Shown piece by piece: positions 13,323-34,229 of a DNA stretch of 64,000 bases (positions are counted from its first letter, which is position 1; each line of letters begins with the position of its first letter). Position numbers and translations under genes: made by a program. This DNA comes from a virus. The notes under the pieces were generated by a model, which saw only the letters and a list, made by a program, of their open reading frames with translations, was not told the origin of the DNA and did not search any database. The stretch covers positions 107,630 through 171,629 of IMG/VR virus record IMGVR_UViG_3300036770_006954; one strand, 5' to 3'.

Positions 13323-14201
13323 TTAATTGTTAAGTCCGTGCATTCCACCCAACTGAACTGCACTCATATCGATAACAGTCCCTTGTCTTCCACCATCGGG
13401 ATTTTCAGGGACCCAATCCACTGGGTGAGGATAAGGTGGGGTTGTGATTACTCCATCACAGTCAACGCACGCATTGGCTTCGTATTGCTCATTTACTTCA
13501 AACACACCAAAAGGTGTTGGTGTTGGAGTTGGTGTTGCAGTGCCAGTCGCAGTTTGAGTCGGTGTTGCTGTATTTGACGCCGTAATACTTGGTGTGGGTG
13601 TATTAGTGTTGGTTGGTGTATTAGTTGGTGTATTTGATGGTGTTTGAGTAGGTGTATTAGTTGGAGTTTCCGTAGGTGTAACCGTTGCTGTTGCCGTAAT
13701 ACTCGGAGTAGGAGTATTTGATGCGGTTATACTTGGGGTAGGGGAATTGGTGGGTGTTTGAGTTTGTGTTTGAGTTGGGGTTACAGTGTTAGTTGGAGTT
13801 TGAGTTACTGTCGGTGTTGGTGTATTTGTTGACGTTTGTGTTTGAGTTGGCGTGTTACTTGGTGTTTGGGTTTGAGTTTGTGTTGGGGTAGGTGTATTTG
13901 TTGAAGTTTGGGTTTGTGTTGGAGTGTTACTTGGAGTATTTGTTGGTGTTGAGGTTGGAGACTCAGTTGGTGTTGGTGTTAAATCTCCCAAACATTCAAT
14001 ACAAGTTTCCCAAGGCCCGTTGAATACTGTGACTACTTGAGCTAAGGGAGTTTCATCAAAATTTACTAAGGTCCAACAACCAATGTTTGTTGACCCCGCT
14101 AATAATTCGTAAATTTTACCTGAAACTATTTTAGCTTCGGTGGCAAAAAATCTTGAAGGTTGACCCGTACAAGAAGTTCCAATAAAATAATTCAACGCCA
14201 T
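13323..14201 (-). CDS. Thr-Pro repeat virion surface protein
   Basis: 292 residues. A globular N-terminus (1-95, with Cys residues and [13 protein letters not shown]) is followed by about 130 residues of degenerate Thr/Pro/Asn/Ser/Gln repeats (units like [10 protein letters not shown] and [10 protein letters not shown]), then a short C-terminal domain with [20 protein letters not shown]. Such stalks are found on extended surface proteins and are often targets of glycosylation. A similar tract occurs in the fibre-like protein at 29246-31237. The DNA is correspondingly repetitive. Likely a virion decoration or fibre element by inference. Confidence 0.8.
13505..13965 (-). repeat. Degenerate short tandem repeats encoding Thr-Pro stalk
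   Basis: In-frame, imperfect 6-12-bp repeats such as GTTGGTGTA and GTTTGAGTT on the plus strand. Low complexity invites length variation by slippage or recombination and could recombine with the shorter, similar tract at about 30670-30800. Confidence 0.8.
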
Positions 14202-24990: not shown

Positions 24991-25066
24991 GTCGAAGTAG
25001 CTCAGTGGTAGAGCAGCTTTCTTAATTGAAGGTGTGACGCGATAGGTTCGATTCCTGCCTTCGGCT
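24991..25066 (+). tRNA. tRNA-like gene with irregular anticodon arm (isotype unresolved)
   Basis: Acceptor GTCGAAG/CTTCGGC, D-arm AGCTC-AGTGGTA-GAGC and T-loop TTCGATT are canonical. The anticodon arm folds best as CTTTC-TTAATT-GAAGG with a 6-base loop; a 7-base loop (CTTAATT, anticodon TAA, Leu) needs a mismatch in the stem. The variable region is about 10 bases. Could be tRNA-Leu(TAA), a degenerate tRNA or the result of a one-base error. Confidence 0.7.
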
Positions 25067-25083
25067 CTTAATTACTCTAAAGA

Positions 25084-29245: not shown

Positions 29246-31237
29246 ATGCCCACAGCTCGTCCTTTCGCTTTAAACACTGGTAATACTATATCAGGCGCCG
29301 AACAGCTCGGTGATTTGGCTATTGGGTATGCTTCTTATGATTATACCACAAATCCTGGTGGTGTTAGATGGTGGGGTGGACCCGATGAAGACCCTGGGTA
29401 TATTATTTGTTATCCTGTTTATTCTCAAAACCGCCCATCACCCGATGGTCCAATAGGAAGTGTTGGATTCAAGAGGTCAAAACAAAAAACGGAAGAATCG
29501 TTCATCCAAATATCTGAGAATATGTCCAATTTTACCGAGACATTTACCTCAGGTGTTGAAGCCAAACAATGGTTGGTTGATAACGGATATTGGACATCTT
29601 ATATTGGTTCCTCGGCTTATACTCCTACGTGTTTTACAATAGATGGTGGTGTGGGTATTGGAGAAAATGCTTGGGATATAGAATACTCACCAACGTCACA
29701 AGAAATCTATCTGAACAATTTTTCCACTATTGGTGCATATGTCATCGATTCCAATACTTTACAATATAAAGGAACATTACCTGTGACGGGTACATCTGGA
29801 AACGGTCAGTTTGCTATCGACTTAAGTGATAACAAATTGTTTACTGGTCAAGTCAATGGGAATTACATTGTCAAATATGATTTGTCAGGATTACCCGTAA
29901 GTGGAAGAACAATAGATGCTGCAGCACAGCCTTATTCACCAACCAATAACTTTTTCCAAATTGCTTACAACCCTGTACATGATAAGTTATACGTGGCAAA
30001 TAATGATTCTAGAAAACTTTACATTCTCACGGGCTCTAACTTGTCAACTATTGCTGAGATTGACCCACCAACACCCCTTACGGGTGATGATGCCTTTAAT
30101 AATGTGGGTGTGAATACAAACAATGGTAATGTAATCACAACATTCGAGGGAGTTTTTATTGATGGTCAATTTTACAATTATTTTATTATAGACGGTGACA
30201 CAAATGAAATCACTTACACTGGATATACAGGTTCTGGTCTCCAATGGGATAATTTAACCAAGGTTATATTTTCACCTGTAAATAATAAGTTTTACCTCAT
30301 TCAATTTACGATAAGTGCCTTTACGGGTAAAGTTATACAAGTTATTGATGCCAATACTGGTGAATTTATTAAAACAATCAACCTATCTACCGCCAACTCA
30401 AACAATCAACAAACTGCAATCATTTACGATTCATTGAGAAATTACATATGGACACCTGACAGGCTTCTTAAACAGTGGGTTGTTATTGACTGTAACACTG
30501 ATGAAATTGTTCTTACATTCGAAGAAACTTTGGGTTGTGCTGGTTCATACTATGGTGGATTATTTGCAACTTACGATACTCTTAATGATAGAATGGTTGT
30601 TACTGCGGGAAGTTCATTTCAAAAAAAATATTTTGAGTTGTCCGAGATTATACCCTATCCTTATGTAACACCAACGCCAACACCTACTCAAGAATTAACT
30701 TCCACACCTACACCTACACCATCCCAAACGGTAACTCAAACTCCAACACCCACACTTTCAATAACACCAACAAACACACCCACACCGAGCACTAGTCCAG
30801 AACCTGTAACAGGATATTCCTTCAACTTAGTTGCCCTTCCATATAATTTTCCATCGTCAGAAAATTCAATTATGAATGGAGAGCCTAGCGCTACTGAAGG
30901 AAGCACCGAAATTAATGTTTTAGCAAGTGGAGGGAGAGGATTTTACTTCAACAGTATAGATTCGGGAAGTGTGGACAGAACAGATTATTATTCTGCATTT
31001 ACGGGTCAAAGTATAACAATAACATTTAACCAAGCAGGAAATGTTGCAATTTATTCGGGAGATACTAATTCATTCAAGTATTGGGAACAAGCACCGACTG
31101 GTAACGGATTTGTGTTTGGTGAGGGTATTGGAGTACCACCTTCAAACACTCCAAGTGGAACTGCGGTGCTAATACAATCGTCACCAACAAATTATACTAT
31201 TGGGTTACCAGTATTTGTGAGTTTGGTTATAAATTGA
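29246..31237 (+). CDS. Fibre- or adhesin-like protein with beta-propeller and Thr-Pro linker
   Basis: 663 residues. Residues about 140-470 contain NHL/YVTN-like repeats built around VIDxxT, NKFYLIQF, NPVHDKLYVANNDSRKLY and similar, predicting a beta-propeller. Residues about 475-525 are a Thr/Pro tract (TPTPTQELTSTPTPTPSQ), as in the 13323-14201 protein, followed by a beta-rich C-terminal domain. The N-terminal 100 residues are Gly/Tyr/Pro-rich. The late-type box and domain plan suggest a virion receptor-binding or decoration protein. Its stop shares one base with the convergent tRNA-Cys. Confidence 0.75.
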   Translation: MPTARPFALNTGNTISGAEQLGDLAIGYASYDYTTNPGGVRWWGGPDEDPGYIICYPVYSQNRPSPDGPIGSVGFKRSKQKTEESFIQISENMSNFTETFTSGVEAKQWLVDNGYWTSYIGSSAYTPTCFTIDGGVGIGENAWDIEYSPTSQEIYLNNFSTIGAYVIDSNTLQYKGTLPVTGTSGNGQFAIDLSDNKLFTGQVNGNYIVKYDLSGLPVSGRTIDAAAQPYSPTNNFFQIAYNPVHDKLYVANNDSRKLYILTGSNLSTIAEIDPPTPLTGDDAFNNVGVNTNNGNVITTFEGVFIDGQFYNYFIIDGDTNEITYTGYTGSGLQWDNLTKVIFSPVNNKFYLIQFTISAFTGKVIQVIDANTGEFIKTINLSTANSNNQQTAIIYDSLRNYIWTPDRLLKQWVVIDCNTDEIVLTFEETLGCAGSYYGGLFATYDTLNDRMVVTAGSSFQKKYFELSEIIPYPYVTPTPTPTQELTSTPTPTPSQTVTQTPTPTLSITPTNTPTPSTSPEPVTGYSFNLVALPYNFPSSENSIMNGEPSATEGSTEINVLASGGRGFYFNSIDSGSVDRTDYYSAFTGQSITITFNQAGNVAIYSGDTNSFKYWEQAPTGNGFVFGEGIGVPPSNTPSGTAVLIQSSPTNYTIGLPVFVSLVIN

Positions 31238-31992: not shown

Positions 31993-32000
31993 AAAAAAGG

Positions 32001-32102
32001 TGTCGGGGTAGGAATCCCACCTACAAGCGAGAACAACCATAGAAGGTCTTAATGTTCTCCATCCAAAAAATGGATGTGCCTTTGTCAATTCAGCCACCCG
32101 AC
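32001..32102 (-). tRNA. Class II tRNA-like element with T-only anticodon loop
   Basis: Acceptor GTCGGG/CCCGAC (6 bp plus a mismatch), D-stem GCT/GGC, anticodon arm CATCC-ATTTTTT-GGATG whose formal anticodon is TTT, extra arm GAGAAC/GTTCTC with a 19-base loop, and T-stem GTAGG/CCTAC. The T-loop is TGGGATT instead of TTCRAxx. A class II body with a Lys-type anticodon is not a standard isotype; it may be a degenerate tRNA-Leu or a tRNA-like RNA with another role. Confidence 0.55.
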
Positions 32103-32466: not shown

Positions 32467-32572
32467 AAGTCAAGACAGGAATCGAACCTATTTTACCGCG
32501 TACATAGCCTAACACTAAAAGTTCGTTTGACTACCTCTTTAACCTACGATTACGAGCCACTCGCTCTTGACT
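32467..32572 (-). tRNA. tRNA-like element A (106 bases, irregular middle)
   Basis: Acceptor AGTCAAG/CTTGACT pairs perfectly, D-stem CGA/TCG encloses a loop with GG, and the T-arm is ATAGG-TTCGATT-CCTGT. Between D-arm and T-arm lie about 55 bases that do not form a normal anticodon arm; the best small hairpin is AAC-TTTTAGT-GTT, which would present TTA. May be a tRNA with an insertion, or a tRNA-like domain of another RNA. Confidence 0.5.
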
Positions 32573-32579
32573 AAATTAC

Positions 32580-32645
32580 CCGTCTTTCCAGGCTGTCAAC
32601 AACTTATGTGTTAGCCTCACACATCAATCACTAGGTTGTCAGCTT
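32580..32645 (-). ncRNA. Structured spacer between tRNA-like elements B and A
   Basis: On the minus strand GCTGACAAC (complement of 32634-32642) pairs with GTTGACAGC (complement of 32592-32600) with one central mismatch, enclosing the hairpin ATGTGT-GAGGCTA-ACACAT. The end of this spacer (GACAGCCTGGAAAGAC) recurs with few changes in the spacer before element D (about 32924-32944), so the two are probably related. Confidence 0.4.
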
Positions 32646-32778: not shown

Positions 32779-32918
32779 TAATCGGGGTGGGAATTGAACC
32801 CACTCTAAAGGACGGTCCCTTTCTCAGTCACACAAGGTAATTACTCCTTGCTACACCTACCGTGTAATGCTTTGTGGCCACTCCACATTACCAAATGTCA
32901 ACCATAGACATCCCGATT
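32779..32918 (-). ncRNA. tRNA-like element D, a 140-base structured RNA ending in a T-arm and acceptor
   Basis: The ends AATCGGG/CCCGATT pair perfectly and the 3' part has a canonical T-arm GTGGG-TTCAATT-CCCAC. Instead of normal D and anticodon arms the middle forms ATGTC-TATGGTT-GACAT, TGTGG-AGTGG-CCACA inside GTAATG/CATTAC, CAAGG-AGTAATTA-CCTTG inside ACGGT/ACCGT, and AAAGG-GACCGT-CCTTT. The plan is that of a larger RNA with a tRNA-like end rather than a tRNA. Confidence 0.5.
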
Positions 32919-33109: not shown

Positions 33110-33312
33110 AAATGGAAACCCCCCCTCTACGCTCACCGTAGTTGTGAATTTTACTGGACATAGTTTACTGTCCACCTGTTGCGAGTCGACTGCAGAGCAG
33201 GGTCCATCACAGAGTACCTTGGGGCATGTACAACTTCTTTATGGTTGCGACCCATTTGAAGCCAAGGTTCCTTTCAACGGTGCTAATCCGTCTTCTGTAA
33301 GGAGTTTTTCCA
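33110..33312 (-). ncRNA. Structured RNA of unknown family with possible pseudoknot (RNA-2)
   Basis: About 200 bases without a credible open frame. Pairings (plus-strand positions): CTACG 33127-33131 with CGTAG 33137-33141; TGGACA 33155-33160 with TGTCCA 33169-33174; CAAC 33231-33234 with GTTG 33244-33247; ACGG 33277-33280 with CCGT 33288-33291; CCTTGG 33217-33222 with CCAAGG 33262-33267. GGGTC 33200-33204 with GACCC 33249-33253 crosses the last helix, giving a possible pseudoknot. On the minus strand it ends in a G-run followed by TTTCC, directly upstream of element C. Confidence 0.55.
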
Positions 33313-33317
33313 TTTTG

Positions 33318-33415
33318 TGGTGTGAGCGGGATTCGAACCACGCGGCACAGTCTTTTTCACGGACTTGCTCTACCATGGGAGTATCATATGAGTACTCCAC
33401 CTGAGCTATCACACC
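33318..33415 (-). tRNA. tRNA-Phe(GAA)-like with hairpin insertion in the D-loop
   Basis: Acceptor GGTGTGA/TCACACC. The D-arm GCTC/GAGC is normal, but its loop holds an extra 24 or so bases that form GGAGTA-CTCATATGA-TACTCC. The anticodon arm AGTCC-GTGAAAA-AGACT presents GAA with a C-A mismatch next to the loop; the T-stem has one bulged T (GCGTGG against CCCGC). A normal tRNA-Phe lies at 37925-37999, so this copy may be degenerate or have another role. Confidence 0.65.
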
Positions 33416-33421
33416 TTATTG

Positions 33422-33502
33422 TACAGAGGGTGGGACTCGAACCCACACATCTTACGATACCGGTTCCTAAGACCGGCGCGGCTACCGTTACGCCACCTCT
33501 GC
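33422..33502 (-). tRNA. tRNA-Leu(TAG)
   Basis: Class II tRNA. Acceptor GCAGAGG/CCTCTGT, anticodon arm CCGGT-CTTAGGA-ACCGG with TAG, T-arm GTGGG-TTCGAGT-CCCAC. 81 bases, no CCA encoded. Confidence 0.92.
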
Positions 33503-33507
33503 ATTGA

Positions 33508-33695
33508 GTTAGTAGTAGTTGACTTTATCAGGAATCCCGCCTAACCCCATTTAAGAAGTCCAGCTTCACACACCATTAGAGAGAGGGTTAATTCTTAGTG
33601 TGTACCCTTGCGATATGCTCTCCCATACCGTCAACCCACGCATTGTACTACCAACCGTTTGTTTTTTCCACCATTTCAAAGACCTTTTGTCTTAA
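33508..33695 (-). ncRNA. Structured RNA with H-type pseudoknot (RNA-3)
   Basis: First element after a Bacteroidota-type promoter. Helices (plus positions): AAGAC 33679-33683 with GTCTT 33689-33693 at the 5' end; a long closing helix GTTAGTAGTA 33508-33517 with TACTACCAAC 33646-33655, continued by GTTGAC 33518-33523 with GTCAAC 33630-33635. Inside it are GATATG 33612-33617 with CATACC 33624-33629, GAAG 33555-33558 with CTTC 33564-33567, and two interlocked helices AGGGT 33584-33588 with ACCCT 33604-33608 and ACACAC 33568-33573 with GTGTGT 33598-33603, the order of an H-type pseudoknot. No open frame; no family recognised. Confidence 0.7.
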
Positions 33696-33703
33696 CAACA
33701 CCA

Positions 33704-33734
33704 CAAATATATGGTAATATTTTTATCAAACCAA
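33704..33734 (-). promoter_or_regulatory. Bacteroidota-type promoter for RNA-3 and the tRNA-Leu/Phe block
   Basis: On the minus strand TTG (complement of 33732-33734), 20 bases, TATATTTG (complement of 33704-33711). It lies inside the 3' end of the gene at 33726-34229. Confidence 0.7.
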
Positions 33735-34229
33735 ATCTTTATGAAAAACTTTTTCTGAATTTTGTTCTACCCAAGACAAACTAATAGAAACATGTTTGGA
33801 AGATTCTTTCTTCGATGATTCAATTTTGGTTTTCACTATTTCCAAAACCTTATCAGTTGTACATTTCCAAATACCATTACAACTAAGTCCATCGTCTTTA
33901 TCAAACAAGGCAAAAAAGAATGCATCGTTTCTTTTAACCCTGTGAAGATTATCTTCATGGATTCTATCAAGTTGAAAACTACCACCTTCTTTACAAGAAA
34001 GGTACTCGTATTTTTCTTTCCCATCTTTAGAATATGCGTCAGCACCATGTTTTGTTTTATGACATTCATGACCAAGAATTTCGGAAACCATCCATTCTTT
34101 AATGAATCCTGGTGTTAACAGGTCTTGTTCAAACCCATTTTCCTTTTTGTATAGGTTTAGAGTCCCTACCAATAGAAGGAGGGGATTTTCTTGTTGTGTT
34201 ACCAAGTCGAGCAATTCATTTTGCGTCAT
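33726..34229 (-). CDS. Unknown protein, possible nuclease
   Basis: 167 residues starting MTQNELLDLVTQQENPLLLL. The segment HKTKHGADAYSKDGKEKYEY then LSCKEGGSFQL has an Asp and a later Glu/Lys pair reminiscent of PD-(D/E)xK nucleases (GADA...E.lscK), but the match is weak. CNGIWKCT is Cys-containing. Starts just after tRNA-Met (34245-34317) on the same strand. No other family suggested. Confidence 0.7.
   Translation of the reverse strand: MTQNELLDLVTQQENPLLLLVGTLNLYKKENGFEQDLLTPGFIKEWMVSEILGHECHKTKHGADAYSKDGKEKYEYLSCKEGGSFQLDRIHEDNLHRVKRNDAFFFALFDKDDGLSCNGIWKCTTDKVLEIVKTKIESSKKESSKHVSISLSWVEQNSEKVFHKDLV

What the first reader, a model, noticed from the sequence alone, without database searches (positions are those of the whole stretch)
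33508..33695. Structured RNA with a long closing helix and H-type pseudoknot
The 10-bp plus 6-bp closing helix, an inner hairpin, a pseudoknot of AGGGT/ACCCT and ACACAC/GTGTGT, and a 5' hairpin all fall in a region with no open frame, directly after a promoter. It matches no family I know.
Basis: seen in the sequence. Interest (0 to 1): 0.85.

Follow-up and report, generated by a model that had tools for sequence, protein, structure and literature searches.

The report
New pseudoknotted RNA in phage tRNA arrays
A roughly 150-nucleotide non-coding RNA, sitting like an extra tRNA gene in the tRNA arrays of large phages (hosts probably Bacteroidota), keeps an elaborate pseudoknotted fold across about 90 distinct relatives and matches no catalogued RNA family, so it is a real new RNA class whose job is still unknown.

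Summary
The RNA is real, but on the minus strand and with a different pseudoknot from the one reported. Scans of viral contigs plus a covariance model gave 94 aligned matches (90 distinct). Across them 95.4% of cells pair, and 33 of 42 pairs show changes on both sides (0 of 500 shuffles reach this). Two pseudoknots are supported by covariation: a kissing pairing of the P3 loop (GGAGAG) with CTCTCT in the P4 loop, and GCG/CGC, which crosses P2. No Rfam 15 family covers it. It occurs once per positive record, nearly always like a tRNA gene inside an array on the same strand, but also alone with its own terminator. Hosts appear to be Bacteroidota. I infer a stable trans-acting RNA released by tRNA processing; its target is unknown.

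The parts
33502..33656 (-). conserved structured RNA (whole model match, 123.9 bits, E 3.6e-27)
   Evidence: 94 aligned matches, 90 distinct
33704..33735 (-). Bacteroidota-type promoter TTTG-N20-TATATTTG upstream of the RNA
   Evidence: 12 sites in window, 2.4 expected
33679..33693 (-). 5' leader hairpin AAGAC-AAAAG-GUCUU, not part of the conserved core
   Evidence: sequence; also in L002/L004
33647..33655 (-). P1 5' strand
   Evidence: covariation in 9 of 9 pairs
33508..33516 (-). P1 3' strand
33639..33641 (-). pseudoknot 2, 5' strand GCG
   Evidence: GCG/CGC varies to GUG/CAC, GAG/CUC, ACG/CGU
33610..33612 (-). pseudoknot 2, 3' strand CGC
33630..33636 (-). P2 5' strand
   Evidence: covariation in 7 of 7 pairs, 98.1% of cells paired
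33517..33523 (-). P2 3' strand
33614..33627 (-). P3 hairpin; loop GGAGAG at 33623-33618 is the 5' strand of pseudoknot 1
   Evidence: P3 covaries in 4 of 4 pairs
33578..33583 (-). pseudoknot 1, 3' strand CUCUCU in the P4 loop
   Evidence: 97.4% of cells paired, 4 of 6 pairs with changes on both sides; found without being in the model
33604..33612 (-). near-invariant joint CGC-AAGGGU
33568..33603 (-). P4 hairpin, ACACAC (33603-33598) / GUGUGU (33573-33568)
   Evidence: 98.0% of cells paired; changes on both sides are few (L034/L045 U-A, L233 G-C)
33539..33564 (-). P5 variable hairpin
   Evidence: 81.9% of cells paired; length varies
33524..33536 (-). near-invariant 3' joint GAUUCCUGAUAAA
33421..33502 (-). 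tRNA-Leu (tag) directly downstream, same strand

Best explanation
A single-copy, stable, non-coding phage RNA of about 150 nt. Shown: it lies on the tRNA strand, usually as one unit inside a tRNA array, with a compact fold. P1 and P2 close the molecule; the P3 loop kisses the P4 loop (pseudoknot 1); GCG/CGC crosses P2 (pseudoknot 2); P5 is variable; about 30 unpaired positions are nearly invariant. Inferred: it is co-transcribed with the tRNAs from Bacteroidota-type promoters, and tRNA 5' and 3' processing of its neighbours cuts it out. Inferred: it acts in trans during infection, its fixed single-stranded joints forming a binding surface for a conserved partner, most likely a host factor (translation or RNA machinery, or a tRNA-targeting defence). 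The variable helices P1, P4a and P5 are only structural. The partner is not identified.
For: Covariation. In one search the two pseudoknots emerge from mutual information although the fitted model held neither. One copy in each of the 27 positive records of the 30 searched. In 75 of 93 distinct copies a tRNA lies within 15 nt on at least one side, and every nearest tRNA found is on the same strand. Stand-alone copies followed by a terminator hairpin occur in a Tannerella MAG beside a phage tail tape-measure gene and in Dysgonomonas sp. 521, and in L226/L231, which argues against a role tied to the neighbouring tRNAs. No reading frame: the AUG..UGAUAA distance is 22/14/13 by modulus 3. No unpaired variable guide segment. 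Largely absent from cellular genomes: 1 of 393 Bacteroidales sampled, that one being the known carrier; 0 of 399 and 0 of 396 in two wider samples, with strict filters.
Against: No transcript, processing or partner data. Release by tRNA processing and action in trans rest on gene position only. The invariant joints show no pairing to the 16S/partial 23S rRNA held beyond chance, so an rRNA-pairing mode is unsupported. No phage gene was seen to accompany it in all contexts. The host assignment is indirect.
Confidence: 0.5

Rival explanations
1. It is a ribozyme or a ligand-binding RNA: the crossing helices and invariant joints build an active site or pocket rather than a protein-binding surface.
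For: About 30 near-invariant unpaired nucleotides held by two pseudoknots; an A-A to U-U exchange between two joint positions suggests a tight tertiary contact. GCG-P2-P3 hairpin-CGC-further hairpins-P2' has a nested crossing topology, as in HDV-type ribozymes (topology from general knowledge).
Against: No match to any Rfam ribozyme or riboswitch. It does not sit upstream of a fixed gene, as riboswitches do. No conserved cleavage site outside the closing helix is evident.
Confidence: 0.25
2. It is a cis-acting spacer or processing element of the polycistronic tRNA transcript (RNase recognition, stability or attenuation).
For: Nearly always beside tRNAs on the same strand; P1 is often followed by a run of T.
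Against: Only one copy per array with dozens of tRNAs, variable neighbours (Arg, His, Leu, Trp, Asp, Thr and others), and stand-alone copies without tRNAs.
Confidence: 0.13
3. It is an ordinary spacer whose structure arises by chance, or a shadow of a coding region or of the plus strand.
For: Single-sequence folding is only modestly better than shuffles.
Against: 90 distinct sequences with compensatory changes, sliding and shuffling controls, no consistent frame, plus strand z -0.18.
Confidence: 0.02

Closest known systems
GOLLD RNA (RF02032) and ROOL RNA
   Same: Phage- or prophage-encoded structured RNAs of unknown function, often near tRNA islands (PMC12286853).
   Different: Far larger and different sequence; no Rfam match of either to this RNA. 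The 412-kb phage of L023 shows a sub-threshold GOLLD-like match and this RNA at different places.
T4 small stable RNAs rnaC (species 1, 139 nt) and rnaD (species 2, 119 nt)
   Same: Similar size, same strand and next to the phage tRNA genes.
   Different: The model scores at most 8 bits over that region with filters off. By eye rnaC ends in a tRNA T-arm-like hairpin, which this RNA lacks.
freshwater-1 RNA (RF02979)
   Same: Also found in these phage tRNA arrays (window 33149-33211 at 66 bits; L006 at 73.2 bits, above cut-off).
   Different: A separate 62-nt family at a separate place; no overlap with this RNA.
HDV-type nested pseudoknot ribozymes
   Same: Similar crossing order of helices (GCG, P2, P3 hairpin, CGC, hairpins, P2').
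   Different: No Rfam match, only 3 bp in the crossing helix, an extra outer helix P1 and a P3-P4 loop kiss.

Membership tests
Any Rfam 15 family | covariance-model match covering the RNA | tested here: not met
   No match covering it at gathering score or at E<=5; other members also unmatched
GOLLD | match to RF02032 | tested here: not met
   (GOLLD-like match in L023 lies elsewhere)
GOLLD/ROOL-like habit | phage RNA of unknown function near tRNA islands | tested here: met
   habit described in PMC12286853
T4 species 1 / species 2 RNA | sequence and structure homology | tested here: not met
   at most 8 bits with filters off
H-type pseudoknot as first read | AGGGU/ACCCU stem conserved | tested here: not met
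   3 of 91 members
H-type pseudoknot as first read | ACACAC/GUGUGU stem conserved | tested here: met
   98.0% of cells paired, few two-sided changes
Small open reading frame or tmRNA-like tag | constant frame from AUG to the tandem stop | tested here: not met
   22/14/13 by modulus 3
HDV-type ribozyme | self-cleavage | not testable with these tools
   needs in vitro transcription
RNase P RNA | Rfam RNase P model match | tested here: not met

The most novel reading that the evidence does not exclude
A new class of phage-borne catalytic RNA, or a host-factor-hijacking RNA, carried once per genome inside the tRNA arrays of large Bacteroidota phages and moved between unrelated phages as a tRNA-like cassette.
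Probability: 0.25. Interest if true: 0.93.

Novelty: categorically new. Interest (0 to 1): 0.76.

Why it matters
It is a whole RNA class with ribozyme- or riboswitch-grade conservation, present once per genome in many large phages (contigs up to 508 kb) and in two Bacteroidales genomes. A cultured isolate (Dysgonomonas sp. 521) carries a copy, so expression, structure and partner can be tested directly. It also raises the question why phages carry orphan structured RNAs in tRNA islands (GOLLD, ROOL, T4 species 1 and 2), here with an RNA small enough for mutational and structural work.

Tried and rejected
Plus-strand RNA: fold no better than shuffles. Coding: no frame. T4 rnaC/rnaD homology: none. 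Relatives in named phages: blastn of members found none; a weak E=8 Listeria phage hit looks like chance; model search of nine named or published phage records, including Lak, Flavobacterium immuto, Tenacibaculum PTm1 and T4, found none, with strict filters. Plasmids: only short matches outside the RNA core. rRNA complementarity of the invariant joints: no more than chance (23S only partial). One pattern scan was off by one base and gave 15 loci, 14 without a model match, which served as a negative control for the model. Literature searches found no description of this RNA, but papers under non-open licences are not in that library.

Full report
What was checked. The window is part of a 171,629-bp virus record with a T4-like portal and terminase, about 28 tRNA genes and a tmRNA. 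The region lies between a minus-strand gene (33726-34229) and a minus-strand tRNA-Leu (33502-33421). The sense strand is therefore minus. Folding favours minus (z -1.99) over plus (z -0.18). A Bacteroidota-type promoter (TTTG-N20-TATATTTG) lies at 33735-33704, one of 12 such sites in the window against 2.4 expected.

Relatives. Three contigs with a 91-92% identical neighbour protein (L002-L004; L003 is the same over this stretch as L002) keep the RNA in the same place, 93-95% identical, while the next tRNA-Leu is a different gene. A core pattern found further copies among 109 stretches of viral contigs; most of the rest were one coding family that shares the 18-mer. A second, gapped pattern for the 3' half found 102 stretches, and a third more. 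A covariance model built on 52 of them then matched 94 sequences, 90 distinct, including copies not used to build it (Dysgonomonas, Tannerella, L214, L233, L235). As a negative control, 14 of 15 loci from an off-by-one pattern gave no match.

Structure. RNAalifold on the 52 sequences finds P1, P2, P3 and P4; 19 of 27 pairs have changes on both sides. On the 94-sequence alignment my full structure has 95.4% of cells paired (shuffled 75.1%), 33 of 42 pairs with changes on both sides (shuffled 25.6) and 713 such cells (shuffled 194.8); no shuffle of 500 reaches these, and sliding the partners by 1-3 columns collapses them. The shuffle control does not allow for relatedness; the effective number of sequences at 85% identity is about 35. 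P4 is nearly invariant (98.0% paired), with changes on both sides only at its first pair (UA in L034/L045, GC in L233).

The pseudoknots. Pseudoknot 1 joins the P3 loop GGAGAG to CUCUCU in the P4 loop (97.4% of cells paired; two-sided changes in 4 of 6 pairs, for example GGGAAAG with CUUUCU in L185, AAAAGAG with CUCUUUU in L191, GGUA with UACC in L023 against GGCA with UGCC in L034). Pseudoknot 2 joins GCG to CGC across P2, changing to GUG/CAC, GAG/CUC and ACG/CGU. Neither was in the covariance model, yet both rise in an unguided mutual-information scan (positions 17-47, 39-84, 37-86), as does an A-A to U-U exchange between the two sides of the P4 loop base, which suggests a non-canonical contact. 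The number of independent events behind the pseudoknot changes is modest.

Conservation. 32 unpaired positions are at least 95% conserved, including AAGGGU, UNAG, GAAG and GAUUCCUGAUAAA, while P1/P2/P3 sequence is free to vary. That is the profile of an RNA held by tertiary contacts or a partner.

Context. In 75 of 93 distinct copies a tRNA lies within 15 nt on at least one side, and every nearest tRNA found lies on the same strand (RNA ends approximated from the core). Neighbours vary. Each of the 27 positive records searched whole has exactly one copy. Eight of 12 carrier contigs tested have a T4-like portal, including the 508-kb and 413-kb ones. Copies without adjacent tRNAs lie next to a DnaB-like gene (my reading of the sequence) in L166/L191, in a Tannerella MAG with a tape-measure gene, and in Dysgonomonas sp. 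521 near an integrase-like gene (also my reading); the last two, and L226/L231, are followed by a terminator hairpin. A Crocinitomicaceae MAG contig begins inside a copy next to tRNA-Phe, which may be an assembly join. Samples of 393 genomes of the order of Dysgonomonas, 399 of the order and 396 of the phylum of that MAG gave only the already known Dysgonomonas copy (stricter filters, so weak copies may be missed). Host Bacteroidota is inferred from the promoters, these carriers and the nearest cultured terminase relative, a Flavobacterium phage (27% identity).

Mechanism. Shown: a conserved, structured, non-coding RNA gene on the tRNA strand. Inferred: excision by tRNA processing, and action in trans on a conserved partner. 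A ribozyme or ligand-binding RNA is the main rival. It is not a guide RNA by anatomy (no variable unpaired segment), nor coding, and no pairing to rRNA beyond chance was found.

Known or new. No Rfam 15 family covers it. It shares its habit with GOLLD and ROOL (PMC12286853) and with T4 rnaC/rnaD, but it is not homologous to the T4 RNAs and does not match GOLLD. I rate the RNA class as new; that an unlisted catalogue outside the open literature holds it cannot be excluded.

Noticed in passing
window 33149-33211 (-): Near match to Rfam freshwater-1 RNA (66 bits, cut-off 72) 300 nt downstream of the RNA; in the related locus L006 (11007-11069) the same family passes its cut-off (73.2 bits), so freshwater-1 also lives in phage tRNA arrays.
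   Followed up: partly
window 32468-32580, 32780-32918, 32000-32100 (all -): Long tRNA-like units with acceptor-like and T-arm ends but enlarged, odd middles that ARAGORN does not call. By eye they resemble T4 rnaC (species 1), which also ends in a T-arm-like hairpin.
   Followed up: no
window 33318-33415 (-): A tRNA gene with an extra hairpin of about 22 nt inserted in the D loop (GGAGTACTCATATGATACTCCC), conserved in L002-L004; the relatives L005/L006 have an ordinary tRNA-Phe-like gene with the same ends.
   Followed up: partly
window 24991-25067 (+): tRNA-like gene with no standard anticodon call (ARAGORN tRNA-???, taat); similar calls occur in L002 at 9679 and 17640.
   Followed up: no
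L023 5689-6122 and 3945-4302: A 413-kb phage contig carries a sub-threshold GOLLD-like RNA (73.6 bits, cut-off 150) and a tmRNA besides the RNA described here.
   Followed up: no
L166 and L191, upstream of the RNA: A second conserved stretch (CTAACATTTGA...TTAAGAATGGTTTT) precedes the RNA in both tRNA-poor contigs, next to a DnaB-like helicase gene; possibly another structured RNA.
   Followed up: no
window 13323-14201 and 29246-31237: Large proteins with long Thr-Pro repeats (TPTPTPTQT...), probably structural or host-contact proteins.
   Followed up: no
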